Assembly (NCBI RefSeq): GCF_015751965.1 | Contig: NZ_JADOVH010000005.1 | Span: 62,001 to 126,000 of the forward strand | From: Frigoribacterium sp. CG_9.8 | GTDB lineage: Bacteria > Actinomycetota > Actinomycetes > Actinomycetales > Microbacteriaceae | Direction: 5' to 3' | Length of the DNA: 64,000 bases | Notes under the pieces: generated by a model | What the model saw: only the letters and a program-made list of their open reading frames with translations | The model's database searches: none | What the model was told of the DNA's origin: nothing | Translations under genes and position numbers: made by a program | Part shown: positions 3,950-12,920 of the stretch, piece after piece | Layout: every line of letters starts with the position of its first letter | How positions within the stretch are numbered: position 1 is the stretch's first letter

Positions 3950-4079
3950 CGCGATCTGCTCAGGCGCGGAGGGTGCGAAACACGATTCTGGTGTTGTGCC
4001 CACACAACCGGTGAAAATCCGCGCAGTGGACTCCGTGGAACGTGGCTGGTAATTCGCTTGAGACCACTATTGTGTGGTC

Positions 4080-5528
4080 ATGTCGGACAGCGATCCTCTA
4101 AGCCCCTCGAGTGCGCAACCCACCCGCAGCGGGGTGAACGCCACCGCGATCACCGTTGCTGGGCTGGACCTGCAGGAGGGCAAGATAATCCCGCGCAGCT
4201 GGGTTGTGGCCTGGGCATTCTGGGATTGGGGCGGGGCAGCATTCAACGCCGTCATCACCACATTCGTCTTCACGGTCTACCTCACCTCGAGTTACTTCGT
4301 TGATCCTGCACTCATCGCCGCCCGCGACGCCGAAGCCTCGCCCACCGGCACCGCGCATCGCGCATACGCCGCAGCCGAAGCATCCCTCTCCGCGGGCCTG
4401 GGTGGCGGGCTCGCGATCGCCGGACTGGTTGTGGCACTCATTGCACCCGTTCTCGGGCAGCGGACGGATGGTTCGGGACGCCGCAAACTCTGGCTCGCCA
4501 TCAATACCGGGGTCGTCGTCGTAATGACCGCCCTGATGTTTTTCGTCGAGGGGAAGCCCACATTTTTCCTGCTTGGCGTCGGTCTCGTCTCGGTCGGCAC
4601 GATCTTCTATGAGATCGCGACCGTGAACTACAACGCGATGCTTGTGCAGGTTTCCACGCCGAGAACCGTTGGCAGGGTATCCGGGCTCGGCTGGGGGGCC
4701 GGCTATCTCGGCGGCATCGTCCTGCTGCTGTTCGTGCTGCTCGGTCTGGTGGGGCTCACTGCCGACTCGGGCGGGTTCTTCGGCGTGACGCACGACAACG
4801 GCCTCAACATCCGCCTCATCGCCGTGATCGCTGCACTGTGGACTCTCGTCTTCTCACTGCCGATCCTGTTTGCCGTGCCGGAGATCAGCCGGGAGAATCG
4901 GCGCGTGCGGGTGGGCTTCTTCGCCTCCTACCGCGTATTGGCCCGGGATATCGCGGCACTCTGGCGGGAGTCTCGTAACACTGTGCTGTTCCTGATTTCG
5001 AGCGCGCTATTTCGCGACGGACTGGTCGGCGTGTTCACCTTTGGGGGGATCCTGGCGCAGGGCACCTTCGGATTCTCCAGCAGCCAGGTGATCATTTTCG
5101 CGATCGCGGCCAACGTGGTCGCCGGCGTGAGTACCTTCATCTCCGGCGTCTTCGACGACCGGTTCGGCGCGAAACCGGTGATCGTCGTCTCGCTCGTCGG
5201 GCTCATCATTGCCGGGCTCGGAGTCTTCCTCGCTCACGATCTCGGACCCAACGCCTTCTGGATCGGTGGGCTCACCCTCTGCCTATTCGTCGGTCCGGCA
5301 CAGTCCGCCAGCCGCACCTTCCTGGCCCGGATCACCCCGGCGGGACGAGAGGGCGAGGTGTTCGGCCTCTACGCCACCACCGGCCGCGCCGTCAGCTTCC
5401 TCGCTCCGGGGCTGTTCACGCTCTTCGTTGCCGTCTCCGGTGCCCAGTACTGGGGCATCCTCGGCATCGTGATCGTGCTGTTGGCGGGCCTCCTGCTGCT
5501 GATCCCGGTGAAGGCACGGCTCAACTAG
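4080..5528 (+). CDS. MFS transporter, UMF1 (Atg22-like) family
   Basis: A 482-residue transporter with about twelve hydrophobic segments. The opening WVVAWAFWDWGGAAFNAVIT and the motif RTVGRVSGLGWGAGYLGG near residue 200 identify the UMF1 branch of the major facilitator superfamily, related to fungal vacuolar Atg22. The substrate is unknown. The start is placed at the ATG of MSDSDPL; a GTG six bases upstream is possible but has no better ribosome-binding site. About 200 bp separate it from the coupled operon that follows, so it is probably a separate transcript. Confidence 0.9.
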   Translation: MSDSDPLSPSSAQPTRSGVNATAITVAGLDLQEGKIIPRSWVVAWAFWDWGGAAFNAVITTFVFTVYLTSSYFVDPALIAARDAEASPTGTAHRAYAAAEASLSAGLGGGLAIAGLVVALIAPVLGQRTDGSGRRKLWLAINTGVVVVMTALMFFVEGKPTFFLLGVGLVSVGTIFYEIATVNYNAMLVQVSTPRTVGRVSGLGWGAGYLGGIVLLLFVLLGLVGLTADSGGFFGVTHDNGLNIRLIAVIAALWTLVFSLPILFAVPEISRENRRVRVGFFASYRVLARDIAALWRESRNTVLFLISSALFRDGLVGVFTFGGILAQGTFGFSSSQVIIFAIAANVVAGVSTFISGVFDDRFGAKPVIVVSLVGLIIAGLGVFLAHDLGPNAFWIGGLTLCLFVGPAQSASRTFLARITPAGREGEVFGLYATTGRAVSFLAPGLFTLFVAVSGAQYWGILGIVIVLLAGLLLLIPVKARLN

Positions 5529-5727: not shown

Positions 5728-6264
5728 ATGGCTAATGTCGTCAGTCCACAGGTCAATACACCGGGTGTGACGCGCGTGTCTTCGATCATGATCGCCGTGC
5801 TCCGCTGCGGTGTCGCCCTCATGTGGATACAGAATGTGGCGTGGAAGGTGCCCCCGGGTTTCGGCCGGGCGAATAACAACGGCCTGTACTTTTGGGCGAG
5901 CCAGGCGGTCGAGCATCCGGTTTCCGCCCCGTATTCGGCCTTCATCAAATCGATCGTTTTGCCGAACATCGAGATCTTCGGATGGTTCACGCTCCTGATT
6001 GAGGGCGGGCTGGGTGCTTTCCTGCTCATCGGTCTCGCCACTCGGTTCTGGGCCGTTGTCGGCATCGGCCAGACGGTGGCAATCACCCTCTCGGTTCTGT
6101 TCGCACCCCATGAGTGGCAGTGGTCTTATTACCTCATGGGGCTCGCTCACCTTGCGATCTTCGCGACCGCAGCCGGGCGAAGCTACGGAGTCGACGGCGC
6201 GATGCGTGAAACCTGGTCGGCGTCATCCGGTCGCCTCTCACGACTCCTGTTGAGACTGTCGTGA
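5728..6264 (+). CDS. DoxX/DoxD-like integral membrane protein
   Basis: A 178-residue protein with about four hydrophobic segments, matching the DoxX superfamily (the small subunit DoxD of thiosulfate:quinone oxidoreductase belongs to it). Typical features are the LRCGVALMWIQNVAWKVP start region, an IEIFGWFTLLIEGGLGAFLL helix, and an extracytoplasmic WQWSYYLMGLAHL segment. It is the first gene of a chain of five overlapping genes (GTGA overlap with the next), so its product probably acts with theirs. In characterised systems DoxX-type proteins hand electrons to quinone or work with oxidoreductases in redox stress. A role in sulfur chemistry here is inference from the TusA-like domain in the last gene. 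Confidence 0.82.
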   Translation: MANVVSPQVNTPGVTRVSSIMIAVLRCGVALMWIQNVAWKVPPGFGRANNNGLYFWASQAVEHPVSAPYSAFIKSIVLPNIEIFGWFTLLIEGGLGAFLLIGLATRFWAVVGIGQTVAITLSVLFAPHEWQWSYYLMGLAHLAIFATAAGRSYGVDGAMRETWSASSGRLSRLLLRLS

Positions 6265-6662
6265 GCCGCGAATCCAGCCCATCCAGTGCGGCCGATCGCG
6301 GTGCGATCCTCACCGGTGTCGCCGCGATCGCGCTTGCCGGTTTCGTGTTCGGCGGTCCACTCCCCATTGAGTTCCGTTTCGTGAACATCGGACCGGTCGG
6401 AGCGGGACTCCTGGTGGTCAGCGGCGTACTCTCCATCGCAAGCGCAATTATCGGGCAACGGTTGCTGCGATTGATCGCCGGAACTCTCCTCATCCTTGGC
6501 GCCCTGGCACAGGTCGTGGGGCTCGCCCTTTCGATCCGACCTCTCGGCGGTGATGCCTCGACGATGGCGGTCGTCGGTGGGCTCGGCATCGGACTCCTCT
6601 CGCTCTCACTCTCACCATCTTCCTCAGCCCACCCGCAGGACCCGATGAAAGGCAGACCGTGA
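6261..6662 (+). CDS. Small integral membrane protein, unknown function
   Basis: A 133-residue hydrophobic protein that I do not recognise. It has four predicted membrane segments (residues ~15-33, 41-58, 65-87, 97-115) with short loops and a Ser/Pro-rich C-terminus. The GTG start is set by the GTGA overlap with the DoxX-like stop, and its own stop overlaps the next GTG the same way. Its position between a DoxX-like protein and an acyl-CoA-dehydrogenase-like flavoprotein suggests a membrane partner or anchor for that system. The coding call rests on the coupled overlaps and the clean membrane pattern. Confidence 0.72.
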   Translation: MSRESSPSSAADRGAILTGVAAIALAGFVFGGPLPIEFRFVNIGPVGAGLLVVSGVLSIASAIIGQRLLRLIAGTLLILGALAQVVGLALSIRPLGGDASTMAVVGGLGIGLLSLSLSPSSSAHPQDPMKGRP

Positions 6663-7834
6663 TCGATATTGCTGAACGACTGGATCCCGTACTCGAGATC
6701 GCCAGGGAGAATGCCCATGACGTGGATACCGCCGGTCGATTCCCCGACGAAACGGTGGCCGCATTACGGTCATCCGGATTGCTCGGACTGACTCTTCCGA
6801 CCGAAGTCGGCGGACTGGGGCAGGGACCGCGGGAGCTCGTGCGGGTGGCCAGCGCCCTCGCTGGCGCCTGCGGATCGACCGCGATGATCTACCTCATGCA
6901 CGTGAGCGCCGCCATGCCCGTTGCCGCCGCGCCACCCGAAGGGATGCCCGGACTGCTCGGCGAACTCGCAAGCGGCCGCTCGCTTGCCTCGCTCGCGTTC
7001 TCCGAAGCGGGGTCGCGCTCGCACTTCTGGGCACCCGTTTCGCGTCAGGCGACGACACCAAGCGGCATCCGGGTGTCCGCGGAGAAGAGCTGGGTCACGT
7101 CAGCCGGCCACGCTGACGTCTACGTCGTATCCACCGGAACGCCGGACGGAGACGGCGTTGACCTCTTCGCGATCCCCGCCGGATCGACCGGCCTCTCGAT
7201 CGATCGCCCCTGGAGCGGCATGGGATTCCGCGGAAACTCCTCGAGCCCGATGACTGTCGAGGTCGACACTGCCGAAGAGTTCCGCCTCGGTGCAGCAGGT
7301 GGGGGATTCGATCTGATGATGGGCCACGTGCTGCCGTGGTTCAACCTCGGCAACTCCGCCGTGTCGATCGGCCTCAGCCGGGCGGCAGTCGATGCCGCGG
7401 TGCGTCACACGATGGGAGCGCGGCTCGAGCACCTTGATGAAAGCCTGTCGTCATTACCGACCATCCGGGCACAGCTCGCAAAGATGTCGATCGATCTCGC
7501 CAACGCGAGCGCCTACCTCGATCTGGCCGCATCGAAGGTCGCGACCCCCGAAGACGACACTCCCCTCTTCGTGCTCGGCAGTAAGGCATCGTCGAATGAT
7601 GCCGCACTGCGCATCACGGATGTCGCCATGCGGGTGTGCGGCGGAGCAGCGTTTTCCGAGCACCTGCAGATCGACCGGTACTTCCGCGACGCGCGAGCGG
7701 GCCACGTGATGGCCCCGACATCGGACGTGCTCTACGAGTTCTACGGTCGCGCGATCACCGGCAGGCCACTCTTTGATGCACCGAAGCCCGCTGCCGACAC
7801 CCGGGTGCCCGAGACGGCACGGTCCGCCGCATGA
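6659..7834 (+). CDS. Acyl-CoA dehydrogenase-like flavoprotein lacking the usual catalytic Glu
   Basis: A 391-residue member of the acyl-CoA dehydrogenase superfamily: helical N-domain with LGLTLPTEVGGLGQGP (~residues 41-56), middle beta-domain with SLASLAFSEAGS and an SAEKSWVTSAGHAD element, and a C-terminal helical domain ending RVCGGAAFSEHLQIDRYFRDARAG. Where true dehydrogenases carry the base in an EGT motif, this protein has MAPTSDVL (~351-358). That substitution is usual in relatives working as flavin monooxygenases (DszC/SfnB type). Genuine fatty-acid oxidation is therefore unlikely. It probably needs a reduced flavin and an unknown substrate. The GTG start is fixed by the GTGA overlap. 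Confidence 0.85.
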   Translation: MIDIAERLDPVLEIARENAHDVDTAGRFPDETVAALRSSGLLGLTLPTEVGGLGQGPRELVRVASALAGACGSTAMIYLMHVSAAMPVAAAPPEGMPGLLGELASGRSLASLAFSEAGSRSHFWAPVSRQATTPSGIRVSAEKSWVTSAGHADVYVVSTGTPDGDGVDLFAIPAGSTGLSIDRPWSGMGFRGNSSSPMTVEVDTAEEFRLGAAGGGFDLMMGHVLPWFNLGNSAVSIGLSRAAVDAAVRHTMGARLEHLDESLSSLPTIRAQLAKMSIDLANASAYLDLAASKVATPEDDTPLFVLGSKASSNDAALRITDVAMRVCGGAAFSEHLQIDRYFRDARAGHVMAPTSDVLYEFYGRAITGRPLFDAPKPAADTRVPETARSAA

Positions 7835-8643
7835 CCGCTCCGCTCGTTATCGGCTCGGTTGCCTACTCCCCGAACGTCGTGCCGATCTGGGAGGGAATGC
7901 GGGACTACTTTGCCGAGACCTCGACACCGATCGACTTTGTGCTGTTCTCCCATTACGGCAGGCAGGTGGATGCACTCATCTCGGGCTCGATCGATCTCGC
8001 CTGGAACACCAATCTCGCCTGGGTACGCACTGCCGGCCAGACCGATGGTGCGTGCCGCGCACTCGCGTCGCGCGACACGGATCTCGTTTTCACCACCGTA
8101 TTCGTCGCTCGATCTGGGAGCGGGTTTACCTCCCTCGAAAGCCTCCGGGGACGTCGCCTCGTTCTTGGGTCGCGTGATTCGGCACAGGCGGCGATCCTTC
8201 CCGTTCACTTCCTGCAGGAGGCGGGCCTGGGTGAGAGTGACGTAACTCTCACCCGCATCGATAGTGATGTGGGAAAACACGGCGACACCGGTCGCAGTGA
8301 ACTCGATGCTCTTCGCGCAGTGCTCGAGGATCGAGCGGATGCCGCAGCAATCGGCATCAACACCTGGCAGGCCATCGGGCGCGGCGAATTGCTTCCCGGT
8401 GCGTTCGAATCATTTTGGACCTCCCCCGAATACAGCCACTGCACGTTCACCGCGATGCCGTCAGTCGCGGTCGAGCGCACGGACCCCTGGGTCGCGAATC
8501 TGCTCGCCATGGACTGGGAGAATCCGCAGCATCGACCGATCCTCGAAATGGAGGGCCTGCAAGCCTGGGTTCCACCAAAGCTCGACGGCTACGCCTCCCT
8601 CGTCGCCGCCGTGAAAGAACAGGGGATCACCGACCGATGGTGA
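7831..8643 (+). CDS. PhnD/SsuA-type substrate-binding-fold protein without signal peptide
   Basis: A 270-residue protein with the periplasmic phosphonate/sulfonate-binding fold. Seen: VIGSVAYSPNVVPIWEGMRDYF, the mid-region motif FTSLESLRGRRLVLGSRDSA (common in PhnD-like proteins), and the C-lobe ADAAAIGINTWQAI. It has no signal peptide or lipobox, and no ABC permease or ATPase gene is nearby. It may therefore be a cytosolic binding protein or enzyme, as THI5/NMT1-like proteins of this fold are. The ATG overlaps the preceding stop (ATGA), and the next gene starts 7 bp before this one ends. Confidence 0.82.
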   Translation: MTAPLVIGSVAYSPNVVPIWEGMRDYFAETSTPIDFVLFSHYGRQVDALISGSIDLAWNTNLAWVRTAGQTDGACRALASRDTDLVFTTVFVARSGSGFTSLESLRGRRLVLGSRDSAQAAILPVHFLQEAGLGESDVTLTRIDSDVGKHGDTGRSELDALRAVLEDRADAAAIGINTWQAIGRGELLPGAFESFWTSPEYSHCTFTAMPSVAVERTDPWVANLLAMDWENPQHRPILEMEGLQAWVPPKLDGYASLVAAVKEQGITDRW

Positions 8644-9683
8644 GCATCAGTGTGCCGGCACAACCCCGGTCGGCTGAGTCGATGGCGTTCAGCGTAGTGC
8701 TCGACCTCATCGAAGGTATCGGGCGAGTGCCGACCGGCCGCACGGTAGAAGTGAGGCTCGGCGAAGGCGACCGGGATGCAGCGCTCGACATCGTCTCCGC
8801 GTGGTGTGCCTCAAGCGGAAACGAGATCGTGTCAATCGAAGGATTGACCGTGACCGTTCTGCACGGGCGCTCCCCCGACTCGCTCGCAGGGCTCGACCCG
8901 GGCCAGCTGCCCGGATCACGAGTGTGGGTTTACACCAACTTCGATTGCAACCTGGCGTGCGACTACTGCTGCGTTCGCTCGTCGCCGAAGGCTGAACGCC
9001 GAGCAATCGGAGTGGACCGGCTCAAGCAAATCGCTGGTGAGGCCGCCGCCGCCGGTGTCGGCGAGCTCATCCTCACGGGAGGCGAGCCGTTTCTGCTCAA
9101 TGACATCGATGTTCTCGTGAACTCTTGCACTGAGAAACTCCCCACGACGCTGCTCACGAACGGAATGCTATTTCGCGGCGCGCGACTCGAGCGCCTGCGC
9201 CGGATGGATCGCTCCCGAGTCATCCTCCAGATCAGCGTCGACTCGGCCACTCCAGCCGTTCATGACAGTCACCGCGGGTCCGGGTCGTGGGCGAAAGCAA
9301 TTGCCGGCATCCGTATCGCACACGAAGAGGGGTTCCGAGTGAAGGTCGCGGCCACCCTGCCCGCCGACCAGATGCACGAGCTCGAACCGTTCCACGATTT
9401 CCTTGACACCATTGGAATTGCGCGTGAGGACCAGGTGATTCGCGCGCTGGCGCACCGCGGTGTCGCCGACTCCGGCATCGAACTCACTGTCGACTCACTC
9501 ATCCCCGAGGTGACGATTACCGCCGACGGTGTGTACTGGCACCCGGTGGCCGCCGATCACGACGACCAGTTCGTCACTCGCGACATCTTCCCCCTCGCGG
9601 ACGCAATCGCAGAAATCACCCGCCGATTCGTTGCACACCGCCGCGCGGCTGACAGCATCGCGGAGTGGTTTCCCTGTGCCTAG
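8637..9683 (+). CDS. TusA-like/radical SAM fusion protein
   Basis: A 348-residue two-domain protein. Residues ~12-76 resemble the SirA/TusA sulfur-carrier fold (GRVPTGRTVEVRLGEGD, then DIVSAWCASSGNEIVSIE, matching the family's W/FC-x-x-GHE segment), but the N-terminal CPxP cysteine motif is absent. Residues ~93-330 form a radical SAM domain with CxxxCxxC (C104, C108, C111) for the 4Fe-4S cluster and the SAM-binding GGEP at ~148-151. There is no SPASM domain, only a lone cysteine in the last three residues. The reaction is unknown; radical modification of a sulfur compound or peptide is possible. The start is the ATG that overlaps the upstream stop. Confidence 0.83.
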   Translation: MVSISVPAQPRSAESMAFSVVLDLIEGIGRVPTGRTVEVRLGEGDRDAALDIVSAWCASSGNEIVSIEGLTVTVLHGRSPDSLAGLDPGQLPGSRVWVYTNFDCNLACDYCCVRSSPKAERRAIGVDRLKQIAGEAAAAGVGELILTGGEPFLLNDIDVLVNSCTEKLPTTLLTNGMLFRGARLERLRRMDRSRVILQISVDSATPAVHDSHRGSGSWAKAIAGIRIAHEEGFRVKVAATLPADQMHELEPFHDFLDTIGIAREDQVIRALAHRGVADSGIELTVDSLIPEVTITADGVYWHPVAADHDDQFVTRDIFPLADAIAEITRRFVAHRRAADSIAEWFPCA

Positions 9684-9759: not shown

Positions 9760-10707
9760 TCAGCCGCAGTACTGGAACGGCATGGGCCCAGTGTTGCTGA
9801 GCGGCGCGTAGGCGAACCAGCCGAATGAGGCGGATCCGCAGCCCGCCGTGAGCGTGCCGTACCAGATGAGCAGCATCGTCACGAGAAACCCGACGGTGAA
9901 ATTGATAAACAGGAACAGCTTCCAGCCCCGGTTCGCGTTGGCGGCGTTGACATCCGTGATGTTCCAGTAGGGCAGCACGGTGAGCGCATACGGCAGCACC
10001 AGAATTGCCGCGAACGCACCGGGAAAGCGGGTGAAGAGCAGCAGGATGCCCGCGAGCAGATAGGCCGAGAAGGCCAGTCGCACAGTCGTCCGCCCTCCGA
10101 TCACCGTGGCGATGGATGCAATACCTCCCTCACGATCGGCCCCGATGTCCTGCACCGCACCGAATGCGTGGGAGGCGACACCCCAGAGGAAGAACGCGGC
10201 CAACAGTGCCCACAGCGCAGGCGTGAAACCGGCTCCCGCAAGCACGAAGCCGAATACGGCCGGCGAGACGAAGTGAGTACTCGAGGTGAGCGAATCGAGA
10301 AGTGGGCGCTCTTTGAAGCGCAGACCGGGCACCGAATAGGCGATCACCGCAAAGATGCTGAGAGCGAGAACCACCCACGACAGCGGGCTGCCCACCACGA
10401 TGAAGAAAACCAAGAACGGCACATTGAAGATGACGACCGCCAGCAGCGTGAGGCGATGCACACTCGGGTCGAGCAGCGCGCCCTCGAGTCCACCCTTGCG
10501 TGGATTGTGCAGATCCGACTCGTAGTCGAACACGTCATTGATGCCGTACATCGCCAGATTGTAGGGAATGAGGAAGTAGATGGTGCCGACGATCAGCACC
10601 AGGTCGATCTGGCGCGTCGACATGAAGTAGGCCGCGGCGAAGGGGAAGGCCGTGTTCACCCAACTCAGCGGCCGAGACGCCACAAACAGGCTCTTAAGGT
10701 TCCTCAC
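9760..10707 (-). CDS. crtEb: Lycopene elongase (UbiA-type prenyltransferase)
   Basis: A 315-residue integral membrane prenyltransferase of the UbiA superfamily. It has the aspartate-rich motif NDVFDYESD near residue 60 and the second motif DIGADREGG near residue 190, which together bind the Mg-prenyl diphosphate. In C50 carotenoid producers this enzyme adds C5 units to both ends of lycopene. The placement at the end of crtB-crtI-crtYe-crtYf supports that role. The GTG start at 10707 lies inside the end of crtYf (14-bp overlap); the in-frame sequence upstream is Cys-rich antisense-like and unlikely to be coding. Confidence 0.9.
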   Translation of the reverse strand: MRNLKSLFVASRPLSWVNTAFPFAAAYFMSTRQIDLVLIVGTIYFLIPYNLAMYGINDVFDYESDLHNPRKGGLEGALLDPSVHRLTLLAVVIFNVPFLVFFIVVGSPLSWVVLALSIFAVIAYSVPGLRFKERPLLDSLTSSTHFVSPAVFGFVLAGAGFTPALWALLAAFFLWGVASHAFGAVQDIGADREGGIASIATVIGGRTTVRLAFSAYLLAGILLLFTRFPGAFAAILVLPYALTVLPYWNITDVNAANANRGWKLFLFINFTVGFLVTMLLIWYGTLTAGCGSASFGWFAYAPLSNTGPMPFQYCG

Positions 10708-11005
10708 GCGGCCTCCCGGGCAGCAGCAGCCAGACCGACGGCAGCAGCACAGCGGCGGCCACAGCGTATCCGAAGTCTTCAAGTGGCGCGATTCCGATGA
10801 ACACACCACTGATCTTGGTGGTGTCGTATCCGACCAGCCCGATGCCGATCATCACGTTATCGAACACCGCGGTGACCAATAGAAGGATGCCGAGGGTGCC
10901 GGCGATCGCCAGCCAGGGCATCGCGCGTCGGCTCTTGGCGACCGCGAGGAATCCGACCACCGCCACCGCAGCGAGGAAGAAGGCGTTGAGCTGCCAATAG
11001 TTCAT
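10694..11005 (-). CDS. crtYf: C50 carotenoid cyclase subunit / lycopene cyclase domain protein
   Basis: A 103-residue membrane protein with three hydrophobic segments and the lycopene-cyclase-domain motif GIAPLEDFGYAVAAAVLLP near residue 72. In actinobacteria two such half-size proteins form a heterodimeric cyclase. With CrtEb present, the dimer probably makes the epsilon- or gamma-type C50 rings rather than beta-carotene. The ATG at 11005 overlaps the crtYe stop (ATGA). Which of the two subunits is Ye or Yf is assigned by order only. Confidence 0.85.
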   Translation of the reverse strand: MNYWQLNAFFLAAVAVVGFLAVAKSRRAMPWLAIAGTLGILLLVTAVFDNVMIGIGLVGYDTTKISGVFIGIAPLEDFGYAVAAAVLLPSVWLLLPGRPREEP

Positions 11006-11358
11006 TGGGGCGGAATCGTGGATTTGGATTGTGTCACCGGCACGGCTGGCCTCCGCCGCCATCGAGAAAGTGCGCCGAACAGATTCATTGCGAGGTAGCA
11101 GAGCAACACCAGGAAGAAGATCTCTTCCAGGGGCAACTCCGGCGCGATGACCAGTCCGGTCATGAAGGACGTTTCACCGCGAAAGAAAATTCCTAGGCCG
11201 ATTCCGGAGAGATCCCACGCTCCGAAGAAGACGAGGCCCACCACCAGCACGATCGCCGCCCGCCTCGCATCGCGCCAGAAGAACAGTGCGAATCGGCGGT
11301 CGAGAATCACCATGCCGGTGAGTGCGACCGCCAGCGCCGCCAGATACAGCAGGCCCAT
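11002..11358 (-). CDS. crtYe: C50 carotenoid cyclase subunit / lycopene cyclase domain protein
   Basis: A 118-residue membrane protein, the partner of CrtYf. It has three hydrophobic helices, a FFRGETSFMTGL element and the conserved APELPLEEIFFLVLLCY motif (residues ~74-90), whose ELPLEE acidic residues are characteristic of heterodimeric lycopene cyclases. It is a subunit of the membrane cyclase acting after lycopene elongation. Its ATG overlaps the crtI stop and its stop overlaps the crtYf start, so stoichiometric coupled translation is likely. Confidence 0.88.
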   Translation of the reverse strand: MGLLYLAALAVALTGMVILDRRFALFFWRDARRAAIVLVVGLVFFGAWDLSGIGLGIFFRGETSFMTGLVIAPELPLEEIFFLVLLCYLAMNLFGALSRWRRRPAVPVTQSKSTIPPQ

Positions 11359-12920
11359 CAGGAGAAGGTGCTTTGCAGCGGCTCAGTGAGAGGTTCGGTC
11401 GAGCGGTCGCCGCGGATGCGTTTGAGCACGACTTCCGCACTGATGAGGCACATCGGAAGACCGATGCCGGGGATCGTGGACCCGCCGGCGTAAAACAATC
11501 CCTCGACCTTTTTGCTTTTGTTTCCGGAACGGAACATTGCACTCTGTGCCAGCGTGTGCGCCGGCCCGAGGGCGGTGCCTCGCCACGCGTTGAGATCACT
11601 CTCGAAGTCACCGGGGCCCATCGTGCGGCGTAGCGTGACGCGGGAGGCAAGGTCCGGGATGCCAGCCCACTCTGAGATCTGCGAAATCACCCGGTCGGCA
11701 AGGACCTCAATGCGGGTATCTCCGTCGCCGTCTACATCGCCCTTGCCGATGGTGGGGTCTGCCGGGATGGGCACCAGTACGAAGAGGTTCTCGTATCCGT
11801 CGGGTGCGGTGGACCGGTCGATTCCACTCGGCTTGCAGACATAAATAGATGCCGGATCGGGAATGGACGGGTTTTCGCCAAAGATCTGGTCGAACCCCGC
11901 CTTCCAGTCGCGGGCGAAGAACAGGGTGTGATGTTCGAGCTGCGGCAGCTCGCCCTTCACGCCCAGGTAGATCAAAAGAGCACTCGGTCCGGCGACCTTC
12001 TTGTCCCAGTACTCCTGCGGGAAGGTCTGCAGCGCCACCGGCAGCAGCTTCGTCTCCGTGTGGTGGAGATCGGCCGCGGCAATCACGATGTCGGCGGCCA
12101 GCGTGTGGGTCGCGCCCGCGGCATCCGTGAAATTGACTCCGGTGACAACGGCATCGCGCGTGTTGATCGCGGTGACCGGGGAGCCGGTGATGATGGTCAC
12201 TCCCTGGTCCCTGGCTACAGCCTCGATGCGCAGGATGACCTGGGTGAGTCCCCCCATCGGATACATGACGCCGCCCTCGAGATCGAGGTGGCTCATCAGG
12301 TGGTACATGCTCGGAGCGATATACGGCGAGGAGCCGAGGAAGACGGCCGGATATCCGAGAATCTGCTGGAGGCGAGCATCCTTCACTCGGCGCCGCACGA
12401 AGGTGGCGAGCGGCGTGAGCAGCAACGAGAAGAGGGTGGCGGTGCGCGAAAGCACATCGCGGCGCAATAGCGGGCGGATGTCGGCGAAGCTCGAATAGAG
12501 GAAGCGTCTCTTGGCGATCTCGTACACATCACGCGCGGAGTCGAGATACTTCTCCATCTTCAGACGGGATCCGGGCTCAATCCTCTCGAACAGGTCGAGG
12601 TTCTCTGCTCGGCTTGCCGTGATGTTGAGCGGCTCGGCTACACCCTCGAACAGCACCTGGTAACCGGGATCGAGGGTTACTAATTTCAGCTGCTCATCAG
12701 CGGTCGTGCCGAGCAGTCGGAAGAAATGATCGAACACCTCCGGCATCAGATACCAGCTCGGCCCGAGGTCGAAGCGGAAGCCATCGCGCTCCCAGGAACC
12801 GGCGCGGCCGCCGACATCGGGTCGACCCTCGAGCAGGGTCACCTCGTGACCGTCTTTTGCAAGGAGGGCTGCGGAGGCCAGGCCGGCAATACCCCCGCCG
12901 ATGACGATGATGCTACTCAT
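11358..12920 (-). CDS. crtI: Phytoene desaturase (lycopene-forming)
   Basis: A 520-residue CrtI-type phytoene desaturase that converts phytoene to lycopene with FAD. It begins with the Rossmann motif IIVIGGGIAGLASAALLAKDGH, followed by VTLLEGRPDVGGRAGSWERDGFRFDLGPSWYLMP, the CrtI signature region. The C-terminal FAD-binding segment is FYAGGSTIPGIGLPMCLISAE. Length and architecture are normal. Its ATG overlaps the crtB stop (ATGA), placing it second in the operon. Confidence 0.95.
   Translation of the reverse strand: MSSIIVIGGGIAGLASAALLAKDGHEVTLLEGRPDVGGRAGSWERDGFRFDLGPSWYLMPEVFDHFFRLLGTTADEQLKLVTLDPGYQVLFEGVAEPLNITASRAENLDLFERIEPGSRLKMEKYLDSARDVYEIAKRRFLYSSFADIRPLLRRDVLSRTATLFSLLLTPLATFVRRRVKDARLQQILGYPAVFLGSSPYIAPSMYHLMSHLDLEGGVMYPMGGLTQVILRIEAVARDQGVTIITGSPVTAINTRDAVVTGVNFTDAAGATHTLAADIVIAAADLHHTETKLLPVALQTFPQEYWDKKVAGPSALLIYLGVKGELPQLEHHTLFFARDWKAGFDQIFGENPSIPDPASIYVCKPSGIDRSTAPDGYENLFVLVPIPADPTIGKGDVDGDGDTRIEVLADRVISQISEWAGIPDLASRVTLRRTMGPGDFESDLNAWRGTALGPAHTLAQSAMFRSGNKSKKVEGLFYAGGSTIPGIGLPMCLISAEVVLKRIRGDRSTEPLTEPLQSTFS

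What the first reader, a model, noticed from the sequence alone, without database searches (positions are those of the whole stretch)
5728..9683. Five-gene, fully coupled operon with no recognised pathway
Seen: DoxX-like, small membrane protein, acyl-CoA-dehydrogenase-like flavoprotein, PhnD-like soluble binding protein and TusA-like/radical SAM fusion all overlap by 4-7 bp. Known: DoxX/DoxD, TusA and DszC/SfnB-type flavoproteins each have ties to sulfur chemistry, and SsuA/PhnD proteins bind sulfonates or phosphonates. Inferred: the operon could take up or remodel an organosulfur or similar small molecule, with electrons passed to the membrane. I know no characterised system with this set.
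Basis: partly seen in the sequence, partly recalled or inferred. Interest (0 to 1): 0.75.

Follow-up and report, generated by a model that had tools for sequence, protein, structure and literature searches.

The report
Swappable operon of a methylthio-sugar pathway
Five overlapping genes form a conserved but uncharacterised bacterial operon, whose relatives in the tuberculosis bacillus are called Rv1678-Rv1681, and which appears to be an exchangeable chemistry module of a pathway that decorates cell-surface glycans with a rare methylthio sugar.

Summary
In detail: five genes at 5728-9683 overlap by 4, 4, 4 and 7 bp. Four match NCBIfam families built on M. tuberculosis Rv1678-Rv1681 above cut-off, and the order recurs across Actinomycetota. 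I found no functional study in the library searched.

New here: in many relatives the operon lies beside a gene set (MTA phosphorylase, epimerase, GT2, TIGR04282/DUF2064, GT-C, two-component system) that fits the methylthioxylose (MTX) glycan pathway. Of 122 distinct TIGR04282 copies, 21 lie 1.7-19.5 kb from the operon; none of these has the methyltransferase gene that adjoins 81 of the other 101. Trees of the shared genes interleave both types, so the operon looks like an interchangeable cassette. In the window's own genome, however, the MTX-type set is on another contig and keeps its methyltransferase.

The flavoprotein lacks acyl-CoA dehydrogenase's catalytic Glu. The chemistry (sulfur/redox tailoring of a 5-thio-pentose, or making another 5'-substituted adenosine) is inferred.

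The parts
5728..6264 (+). DoxX/DoxD-like membrane protein (178 aa); in 6 of 60 DoxX-bearing loci it is fused to the next protein
   Evidence: PF04173 29.5 bits over cut-off 22.7; NF041179 thiosulfate:quinone oxidoreductase only 22.3 bits versus 300; fused forms 275-317 aa, among them the Mycobacteriaceae locus L032
6261..6662 (+). Rv1678 C-terminal-type small membrane protein (133 aa, about 4 TM)
   Evidence: NF049986 79.4 bits, cut-off 50; hydropathy
6659..7834 (+). Rv1679/FadE16-type flavoprotein of the acyl-CoA dehydrogenase fold, without the catalytic Glu
   Evidence: NF049984 654 bits, cut-off 600; Ala352 in MAPT invariant in 26 of 26, aligned to the Glu of acyl-CoA dehydrogenase 2dvl
7706..7720 (+). 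VMAPT motif: place of the missing catalytic Glu
7831..8643 (+). Rv1680-type PhnD/PtxB-like binding-protein fold (270 aa), predicted cytosolic
   Evidence: NF049985 487 bits, cut-off 400; model pLDDT 92.6; Foldseek top hits PhnD, PhnD1, PtxB, then ArrX and AioX
8272..8292 (+). GKHGDTG motif, candidate ligand or catalytic site
   Evidence: invariant in 37 of 37 sequences
8637..9683 (+). Rv1681-type (annotated MoeX in M. tuberculosis) radical SAM protein with TusA-like N-terminal domain
   Evidence: NF049973 530 bits, cut-off 380; PF04055 86.9 bits, cut-off 29.5
8688..8876 (+). TusA-like N-terminal domain, lacking the first strand and CPxP cysteine
   Evidence: not found by PF01206 at E 0.001
8946..8972 (+). 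CxxxCxxCC motif of the [4Fe-4S]/SAM site
   Evidence: Cys103, 107, 110, 111 invariant in 33 of 33

Best explanation
The operon is the actinobacterial Rv1678-Rv1681 cassette, an accessory and exchangeable module of the methylthioxylose (MTX)-type pathway, which turns 5'-methylthioadenosine into a polyprenyl-phosphate-linked 5-thio-pentofuranose and transfers it to surface glycans. Shown by computation: families, synteny, genomic linkage to an MTX-type gene set in relatives, and absence there of a methyltransferase plus molybdenum oxidoreductase pair that the set otherwise carries. Inferred: the cassette does redox/sulfur tailoring of the 5-substituted pentose or of its 5'-substituted adenosine precursor. 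The flavoprotein would act as a monooxygenase-type enzyme rather than a dehydrogenase, the PhnD-like protein would hold an anionic substrate in the cytosol, the radical SAM protein would modify the sugar or nucleotide, and the DoxX pair would be its membrane redox partner. The order of steps and the substrate are not known.
For: (1) Linkage: TIGR04282 lies 1.7-8.5 kb from the binding-protein gene in 16 of 50 operon genomes, and within 20 kb in 4 of the 7 SBP-positive genomes of a 148-genome class draw. Epimerase, GT2, MTA phosphorylase, GT-C and two-component genes accompany it in varying numbers. (2) Co-occurrence: TIGR04282-like at E <= 1e-15 in 45 of 50 operon genomes (46 at 0.001) versus 63 of 148 in the class draw. 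(3) Cassette exchange: 0 of 21 operon-linked TIGR04282 copies have the methyltransferase within 4 kb, against 81 of 101 unlinked copies. (4) Trees of GT2, epimerase and TIGR04282 interleave the two types: starred branches force at least 8, 4 and 5 changes of the operon label, so the core is shared. (5) In 3 of 8 Cryobacterium loci TIGR04282 follows the radical SAM gene by 13-203 bp. (6) A distant radical SAM gene with DoxX and an AhpD-like gene sits beside the same core in L040, L041 and L043. (7) MTX chemistry: MtxS is Rv0539, MtxT is Rv0541c, the precursor is 5'-methylthioadenosine (PMC8780516 and PMC11127046, passages).
Against: In the window's own genome the MTX-type set is on another contig (C4 versus C5) and keeps the methyltransferase and two Mo-oxidoreductases, so both modules coexist. 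In 34 of 50 operon genomes no linkage was seen (5 of these lack TIGR04282 at E <= 1e-15; many assemblies are fragmented). One operon locus without other core genes, L063, has a Mo-oxidoreductase match (36%) about 2.4 kb upstream. Within one mycobacterial genus the modules are not exclusive by genome: 10 of 118 have the SBP over cut-off; a methyltransferase scoring 246 bits or more is in 2 of these 10 and in 44 of the other 108, p 0.31, and 5 more of the 10 have a lower-scoring relative. Presence association in the class draw is weak (6 of 7 versus 57 of 141, p 0.04), and one of the 7 is a weak SBP match. Clustering of the operon label on the epimerase tree is not significant (67 of 500 shuffles). 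The methyltransferase profile A4 was built from loci of that same draw. Planctomycete and Armatimonadete relatives show no radical SAM or DoxX gene. Identity of the linked set with Rv0535-Rv0541c rests partly on recalled gene order. No chemistry was tested.
Confidence: 0.45

Rival explanations
1. The radical SAM protein makes a new 5'-substituted 5'-deoxyadenosine (as ArsS is held to do in arsenosugar synthesis, recalled), with the substituent drawn from an oxyanion held by the PhnD-like protein; the MTA phosphorylase and the glycosyl core then convert it to a surface sugar with a heteroatom other than SMe.
For: TIGR04282-like and weakly TIGR04283-like proteins, both models named for arsenosugar synthesis, accompany the operon (the proteins scanned fall below the cut-offs); nucleoside phosphorylase in the linked set; the SBP fold is nearest to phosphite/phosphonate binders, then arsenate and arsenite binders; radical SAM neighbours in the PDB include the sugar or nucleotide enzymes BlsE, DesII, viperin, MoaA, AbmM.
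Against: ArsS model not reached (39.9-49.3 bits versus 300 in three relatives). The core trees interleave both cluster types, which suggests the same sugar. No evidence of adenosyl transfer; the peptide maturases SkfB and SuiB are about as near.
Confidence: 0.15
2. A separate oxyanion pathway (phosphite/phosphonate, selenium, arsenic or sulfonate), and the MTX linkage is incidental.
For: PhnD/PtxB/ArrX/AioX-like fold; TIGR04553 putative selenate SBP is the second NCBIfam match, 87.6 bits versus cut-off 250; flavoprotein plus SBP stand without radical SAM and DoxX in non-actinobacterial loci L103, L105 and L109; three operon genomes of Actinomycetota (G302, G307, G321; two are metagenome bins) have no TIGR04282 hit at all.
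Against: No ABC genes beside the window's operon, no signal peptide by hydropathy; linkage and cassette pattern would be hard to explain.
Confidence: 0.2
3. One reading: uptake and breakdown of an organosulfur nutrient.
For: SfnB, DszC and sulfinopropanoyl-CoA desulfinase models match the flavoprotein weakly; DoxD fold.
Against: Those models are far below cut-off (46-93 bits versus 431-850); no export signal or ABC permease; linkage to glycan genes in relatives.
Confidence: 0.07
4. Molybdopterin biosynthesis, as the MoeX annotation of Rv1681 implies.
For: Annotation 'possible molybdopterin biosynthesis protein MoeX' (PMC4202705, passages); MoaA is a relative.
Against: MoaA models at 49-60 bits versus 231-325 cut-off; no Mo-oxidoreductase was found in the operon-linked clusters.
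Confidence: 0.03

Closest known systems
M. tuberculosis Rv1678-Rv1679(fadE16)-Rv1680-Rv1681(moeX)
   Same: All four NCBIfam families met above cut-off; same order in the Mycobacteriaceae locus L032
   Different: In L032 DoxX and the small membrane protein are one chain (296 aa); here they are two. No functional study found in the library searched
MTX capping pathway of mycobacterial lipoarabinomannan (MtxS Rv0539, MtxT Rv0541c)
   Same: The gene set linked to the operon in relatives, and present on contig C4 here, has an MTA phosphorylase, epimerase, polyprenyl-phosphate sugar synthase-like GT2, DUF2064 and GT87/GT-C-like proteins
   Different: The operon itself is not part of the described pathway; the acceptor glycan of a non-mycobacterial actinobacterium is unknown; M. 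tuberculosis sequences were not compared directly
Arsenosugar pathway (ArsS with TIGR04282/TIGR04283)
   Same: TIGR04282-like and weakly TIGR04283-like proteins near a radical SAM gene
   Different: ArsS model not met; an arsenic methyltransferase was not looked for
PhnD/PtxB phosphite-phosphonate binding proteins
   Same: Fold (TM 0.70-0.75) and sequence (4e-25 to 7s6g)
   Different: No signal peptide by hydropathy, no ABC partners beside the window's operon, own invariant GKHGDTG and YxHCxF motifs
TusA sulfur carriers
   Same: alpha-beta-alpha-beta-beta core and conserved Trp-Cys
   Different: No CPxP cysteine, no first strand; fused to a radical SAM domain or, in L103 and L105, to an R2lox-like protein

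Membership tests
Rv1678-Rv1681 NCBIfam set | curated cut-offs of NF049986, NF049984, NF049985, NF049973 | tested here: met
   79/50, 654/600, 487/400, 530/380 bits
Rv1678-Rv1681 operon | conserved gene order | tested here: met
   51 of 70 SBP loci have all four main genes; of 52 with DoxX and flavoprotein, 49 have DoxX on the same strand within 700 bp upstream
Acyl-CoA dehydrogenase | catalytic Glu in the EGT motif | tested here: not met
   Ala352 in 26 of 26, aligned to Glu of 2dvl; some dehydrogenases hold the base elsewhere (recalled), not tested formally
ABC phosphonate/sulfonate binding protein | periplasmic-binding fold | tested here: met
ABC phosphonate/sulfonate binding protein | export signal and ABC permease/ATPase partners | tested here: not met
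   No membrane segment or signal by simple hydropathy (no signal-peptide predictor was run); no such genes beside the window's operon
TusA sulfur carrier | CPxP catalytic cysteine | tested here: not met
   absent in 33 of 33 N-termini
TusA sulfur carrier | sequence model PF01206 | tested here: inconclusive
   19 of 32 members match weakly; window domain 13.2 bits versus 28.6
Radical SAM superfamily | CxxxCxxC and PF04055 | tested here: met
   invariant in 33 of 33; 86.9 bits versus 29.5
Thiosulfate:quinone oxidoreductase DoxD | NF041179 cut-off | tested here: not met
   22.3 bits versus 300; the DoxD family PF04173 is met
MoaA / molybdopterin biosynthesis | NCBIfam MoaA cut-offs | tested here: not met
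   48.9 to 59.7 bits versus 231 to 325
ArsS arsenosugar enzyme | TIGR04167 cut-off | tested here: not met
   39.9 to 49.3 bits versus 300 in three relatives; not among the 25 best shown of 74 for the window protein
MTX pathway | genomic linkage of the operon to the MTX-type set | tested here: met
   in 16 of 50 operon genomes and 4 of 7 of the class draw; not in the window's own genome, where the set is on another contig
MTX pathway | MTX or its oxidised form on the glycan, operon-dependent | not testable with these tools
   needs chemistry

The most novel reading that the evidence does not exclude
The operon encodes a radical SAM route to a new 5'-heteroatom-substituted adenosine or pentose, so that one conserved glycosyl core (phosphorylase, epimerase, DUF2064, GT2, GT-C) decorates actinobacterial surfaces with different heteroatom sugars depending on which cassette is plugged in: a methyltransferase plus Mo-enzyme cassette, this operon, or an AhpD-radical SAM-DoxX cassette.
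Probability: 0.15. Interest if true: 0.87.

Novelty: new variant of a known kind. Interest (0 to 1): 0.62.

Why it matters
It gives a testable role to an uncharacterised set of conserved genes whose members carry misleading names (FadE16, MoeX, phosphonate-binding protein), and places them beside genes like those that make a rare thio-sugar on the surface of mycobacteria. A 2024 paper says it is unclear whether MTX-type addition exists outside lipoarabinomannan (PMC11127046, passage); the marker gene TIGR04282 occurs at E <= 1e-15 in 63 of 148 genomes drawn from this class. Alternative enzyme cassettes around one core would be a natural experiment for finding the chemistry.

Tried and rejected
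TusA by Pfam in the own genome: no match at E 0.001; scanning the family's N-terminal domains gave weak but specific support, and a profile search of the PDB gave 1pav (SirA/TusA-like, recalled) at E 0.038 behind three other hits. A RiPP-maturase reading was considered and set aside because no conserved cysteine-rich SPASM-type tail shows in the family alignment; a precursor peptide was not sought. Simple ORF clustering was spoiled by antisense frames and replaced by a composition-based caller, which still mis-called some genes, so counts rest on tblastn and HMM searches. Genome-level exclusion of the two cassettes was tested and not borne out. Papers: seen as search listings (searches listed none) and as passages (PMC8780516, PMC11127046, PMC10675199, PMC10503756, PMC3229680, PMC4202705, PMC5499769). 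The other five papers were seen as listing only. The MTX gene paper PMC5357196 is not held. The M. tuberculosis gene order Rv0535-Rv0541c is recalled, apart from Rv0539 and Rv0541c.

Rows dropped: 7 of 65 TIGR04282 rows with E above 1e-15, and 1 of 56 SBP rows (second fragment of one gene), were left out. One genome (G341 and G350, same coordinates) stood in both sets; the pooled counts given here leave it out once. Rows below 60-70% of query length, and L054 and L102 (other families), were left out of the trees.
Full report
WHAT IS THERE. Genes at 5728-6264, 6261-6662, 6659-7834, 7831-8643 and 8637-9683, all on +, overlap by 4, 4, 4 and 7 bp. The last gene starts at ATG 8637, not at the mechanical TTG 8415; many relatives share the MV... 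start. Upstream is an ATG22-like MFS gene (4074-5528) with a 199-bp gap; downstream, on the other strand, a UbiA-type prenyltransferase and a CrtI-family gene. Hits are DoxD (PF04173), NF049986 (Rv1678 C-terminal), NF049984 (Rv1679, FadE16), NF049985 (Rv1680) and NF049973 (Rv1681), all above cut-off.

CONSERVATION. 64 of 70 have the flavoprotein, 63 of 70 the radical SAM gene, 55 of 70 DoxX, and 51 of 70 all of them; some loci end at contig edges and several are near-copies. Median gaps are 17 bp (flavoprotein to binding protein, 64 loci) and -4 bp (binding protein to radical SAM, 63 loci). DoxX and the small membrane protein are fused in 6 of 60 DoxX loci, among them the Mycobacteriaceae locus L032. 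Five loci are from Gemmataceae, Planctomycetia or Armatimonadetes: L103, L105, L109 and L113 have flavoprotein plus binding protein, L104 starts at the binding-protein gene, L113 ends in it; none shows a radical SAM or DoxX gene. In L103 and L105 the next gene is a TusA-like domain fused to an R2lox-like protein. The binding-protein family is rare: 7 of 148 genomes of the class at E 1e-40, 5 of them over cut-off.

THE PROTEINS. Flavoprotein: acyl-CoA dehydrogenase fold, but the catalytic Glu is Ala in 26 of 26 relatives and in the alignment to 2dvl, so it is probably not a dehydrogenase of acyl-CoA; monooxygenase-type members of the fold (DszC, HsaA) are weak matches. Binding protein: AlphaFold model pLDDT 92.6, nearest solved folds PhnD, PhnD1, PtxB, then ArrX and AioX; no hydrophobic segment; invariant GKHGDTG and YxHCxF. 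Radical SAM: CxxxCxxCC and a C-terminal F-x-C invariant; model pLDDT 84; nearest solved folds are BlsE, SkfB, DesII and SuiB, further down viperin, MoaA and AbmM. N-terminal domain: TusA-like without the catalytic cysteine.

THE LINK. Genes around the operon in relatives include TIGR04282-like (DUF2064), GT2, epimerase, MTA phosphorylase, membrane GT and two-component genes. PMC8780516 (passage) names MtxS (Rv0539, MTX-P-C50) and MtxT (Rv0541c); PMC11127046 (passage) states that MTX starts from 5'-methylthioadenosine and uses a decaprenyl-phosphate donor and a GT-C. The linked set has these functions, so I call it MTX-type; the match to Rv0535, Rv0536 and Rv0540 is recalled. In the Mycobacteriaceae genome G150 the set lies 19.5 kb from the operon.

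THE CASSETTE PATTERN. In 16 loci fetched around TIGR04282 in 15 genomes without the operon (L120-L135) and in the window genome (L115), a methyltransferase is present in 17 of 17 and a cytochrome b561-molybdopterin oxidoreductase in 15 of 17. In the loci that hold both the operon and core genes neither was found (most flanks reach only 8 kb). One operon locus without core genes, L063, has a Mo-oxidoreductase match nearby. Counted over whole genomes, 0 of 17 linked copies in 50 operon genomes and 0 of 4 in the 148-genome draw have the methyltransferase within 4 kb, against 25 of 41 and 56 of 61 unlinked copies; pooled without one genome that stood in both sets, 0 of 21 against 81 of 101 (Fisher p 1e-12). 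Related genomes are counted separately, so p is only a guide. Trees of GT2, epimerase and TIGR04282 mix the two types within lineages, for example the operon-type L116 with the methyltransferase-type L120 (GT2, TIGR04282) or L135 (epimerase) in Mycobacteriaceae, and L108 (marine actinobacterium PHSC20C1) with L115 for GT2; starred branches force at least 8, 4 and 5 changes of the operon label. I read this as exchange of cassettes on a common core.

LIMITS. The window genome carries both: the operon on C5 and a complete MTX-type set with methyltransferase and two Mo-oxidoreductases on C4. In a mycobacterial genus draw 10 of 118 genomes have the binding protein over cut-off; a methyltransferase of 246 bits or more is in 2 of these 10 and in 44 of the other 108 (p 0.31), the bit line being my choice in a continuous range. 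In the class draw, co-occurrence of binding protein and TIGR04282 is weakly significant (6 of 7 versus 57 of 141, p 0.04). 34 of 50 operon genomes show no linkage. The chemistry is not shown.

MECHANISM, WITH LEVELS. Shown by computation: families, order, linkage, replacement pattern. Inferred from family knowledge: cytosolic binding of an anion or sugar phosphate, flavin-dependent oxygenation or other redox step, radical modification of a sugar or nucleotide, membrane redox partner. Both alternative cassettes contain enzymes related to sulfur-oxide or redox families, in each case below the curated cut-offs of the named enzymes (SorA/SoxC/MsrP-like in one; the DoxD family and DszC/SfnB-like in the other), which is why I favour tailoring around the sulfur of the 5-thio-pentose. 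That last step is inference only.

NOVELTY. The families are named, the operon has no functional study in the library searched, and no paper in those listings linked it to MTX-type genes; the library lacks most subscription journals.

Noticed in passing
own genome contig C4 24000-42000 (L115 1142-12244): A complete MTX-type gene set in a non-mycobacterial actinobacterium: MTA phosphorylase, epimerase, two sulfite-oxidase-family Mo-enzymes, HK/RR, GT2, TIGR04282-like, methyltransferase, GT87.
   Followed up: partly
L103 8954-10294 and L105 2343-3518: TusA-like domain fused to an R2lox/ferritin-like protein directly after the binding-protein gene in a Gemmataceae and an Armatimonadetes bin.
   Followed up: partly
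L035 7611-9311, L036 6894-8924: Rv1681-like radical SAM domain fused to what looks (by eye) like a calcineurin-type phosphoesterase; in L036 an MFS gene precedes and a weakly TIGR04282-like gene (28%) follows.
   Followed up: partly
L038-L043: An AhpD-like gene beside a short Rv1681-like radical SAM gene in 6 of 6 loci, with DoxX found by tblastn in 5 of 6; MTX-type core genes adjoin in L040-L043.
   Followed up: partly
L036, L067, L081, L094, L095, L108, L110: An aromatic-acid-type MFS transporter gene recurs next to the operon or its radical SAM gene; the flavoprotein was not found in 6 of these 7 loci, of which L095 is cut at the contig edge.
   Followed up: no
G312:C23, G384:C9, G550:C1, G572:C9, G504:C66: A second, weaker binding-protein subfamily at 213-244 bits against the 400-bit cut-off.
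   Followed up: no
window 9760-12920: UbiA-type prenyltransferase, two small membrane ORFs and a CrtI-family gene on the minus strand directly after the operon, probably carotenoid genes.
   Followed up: no
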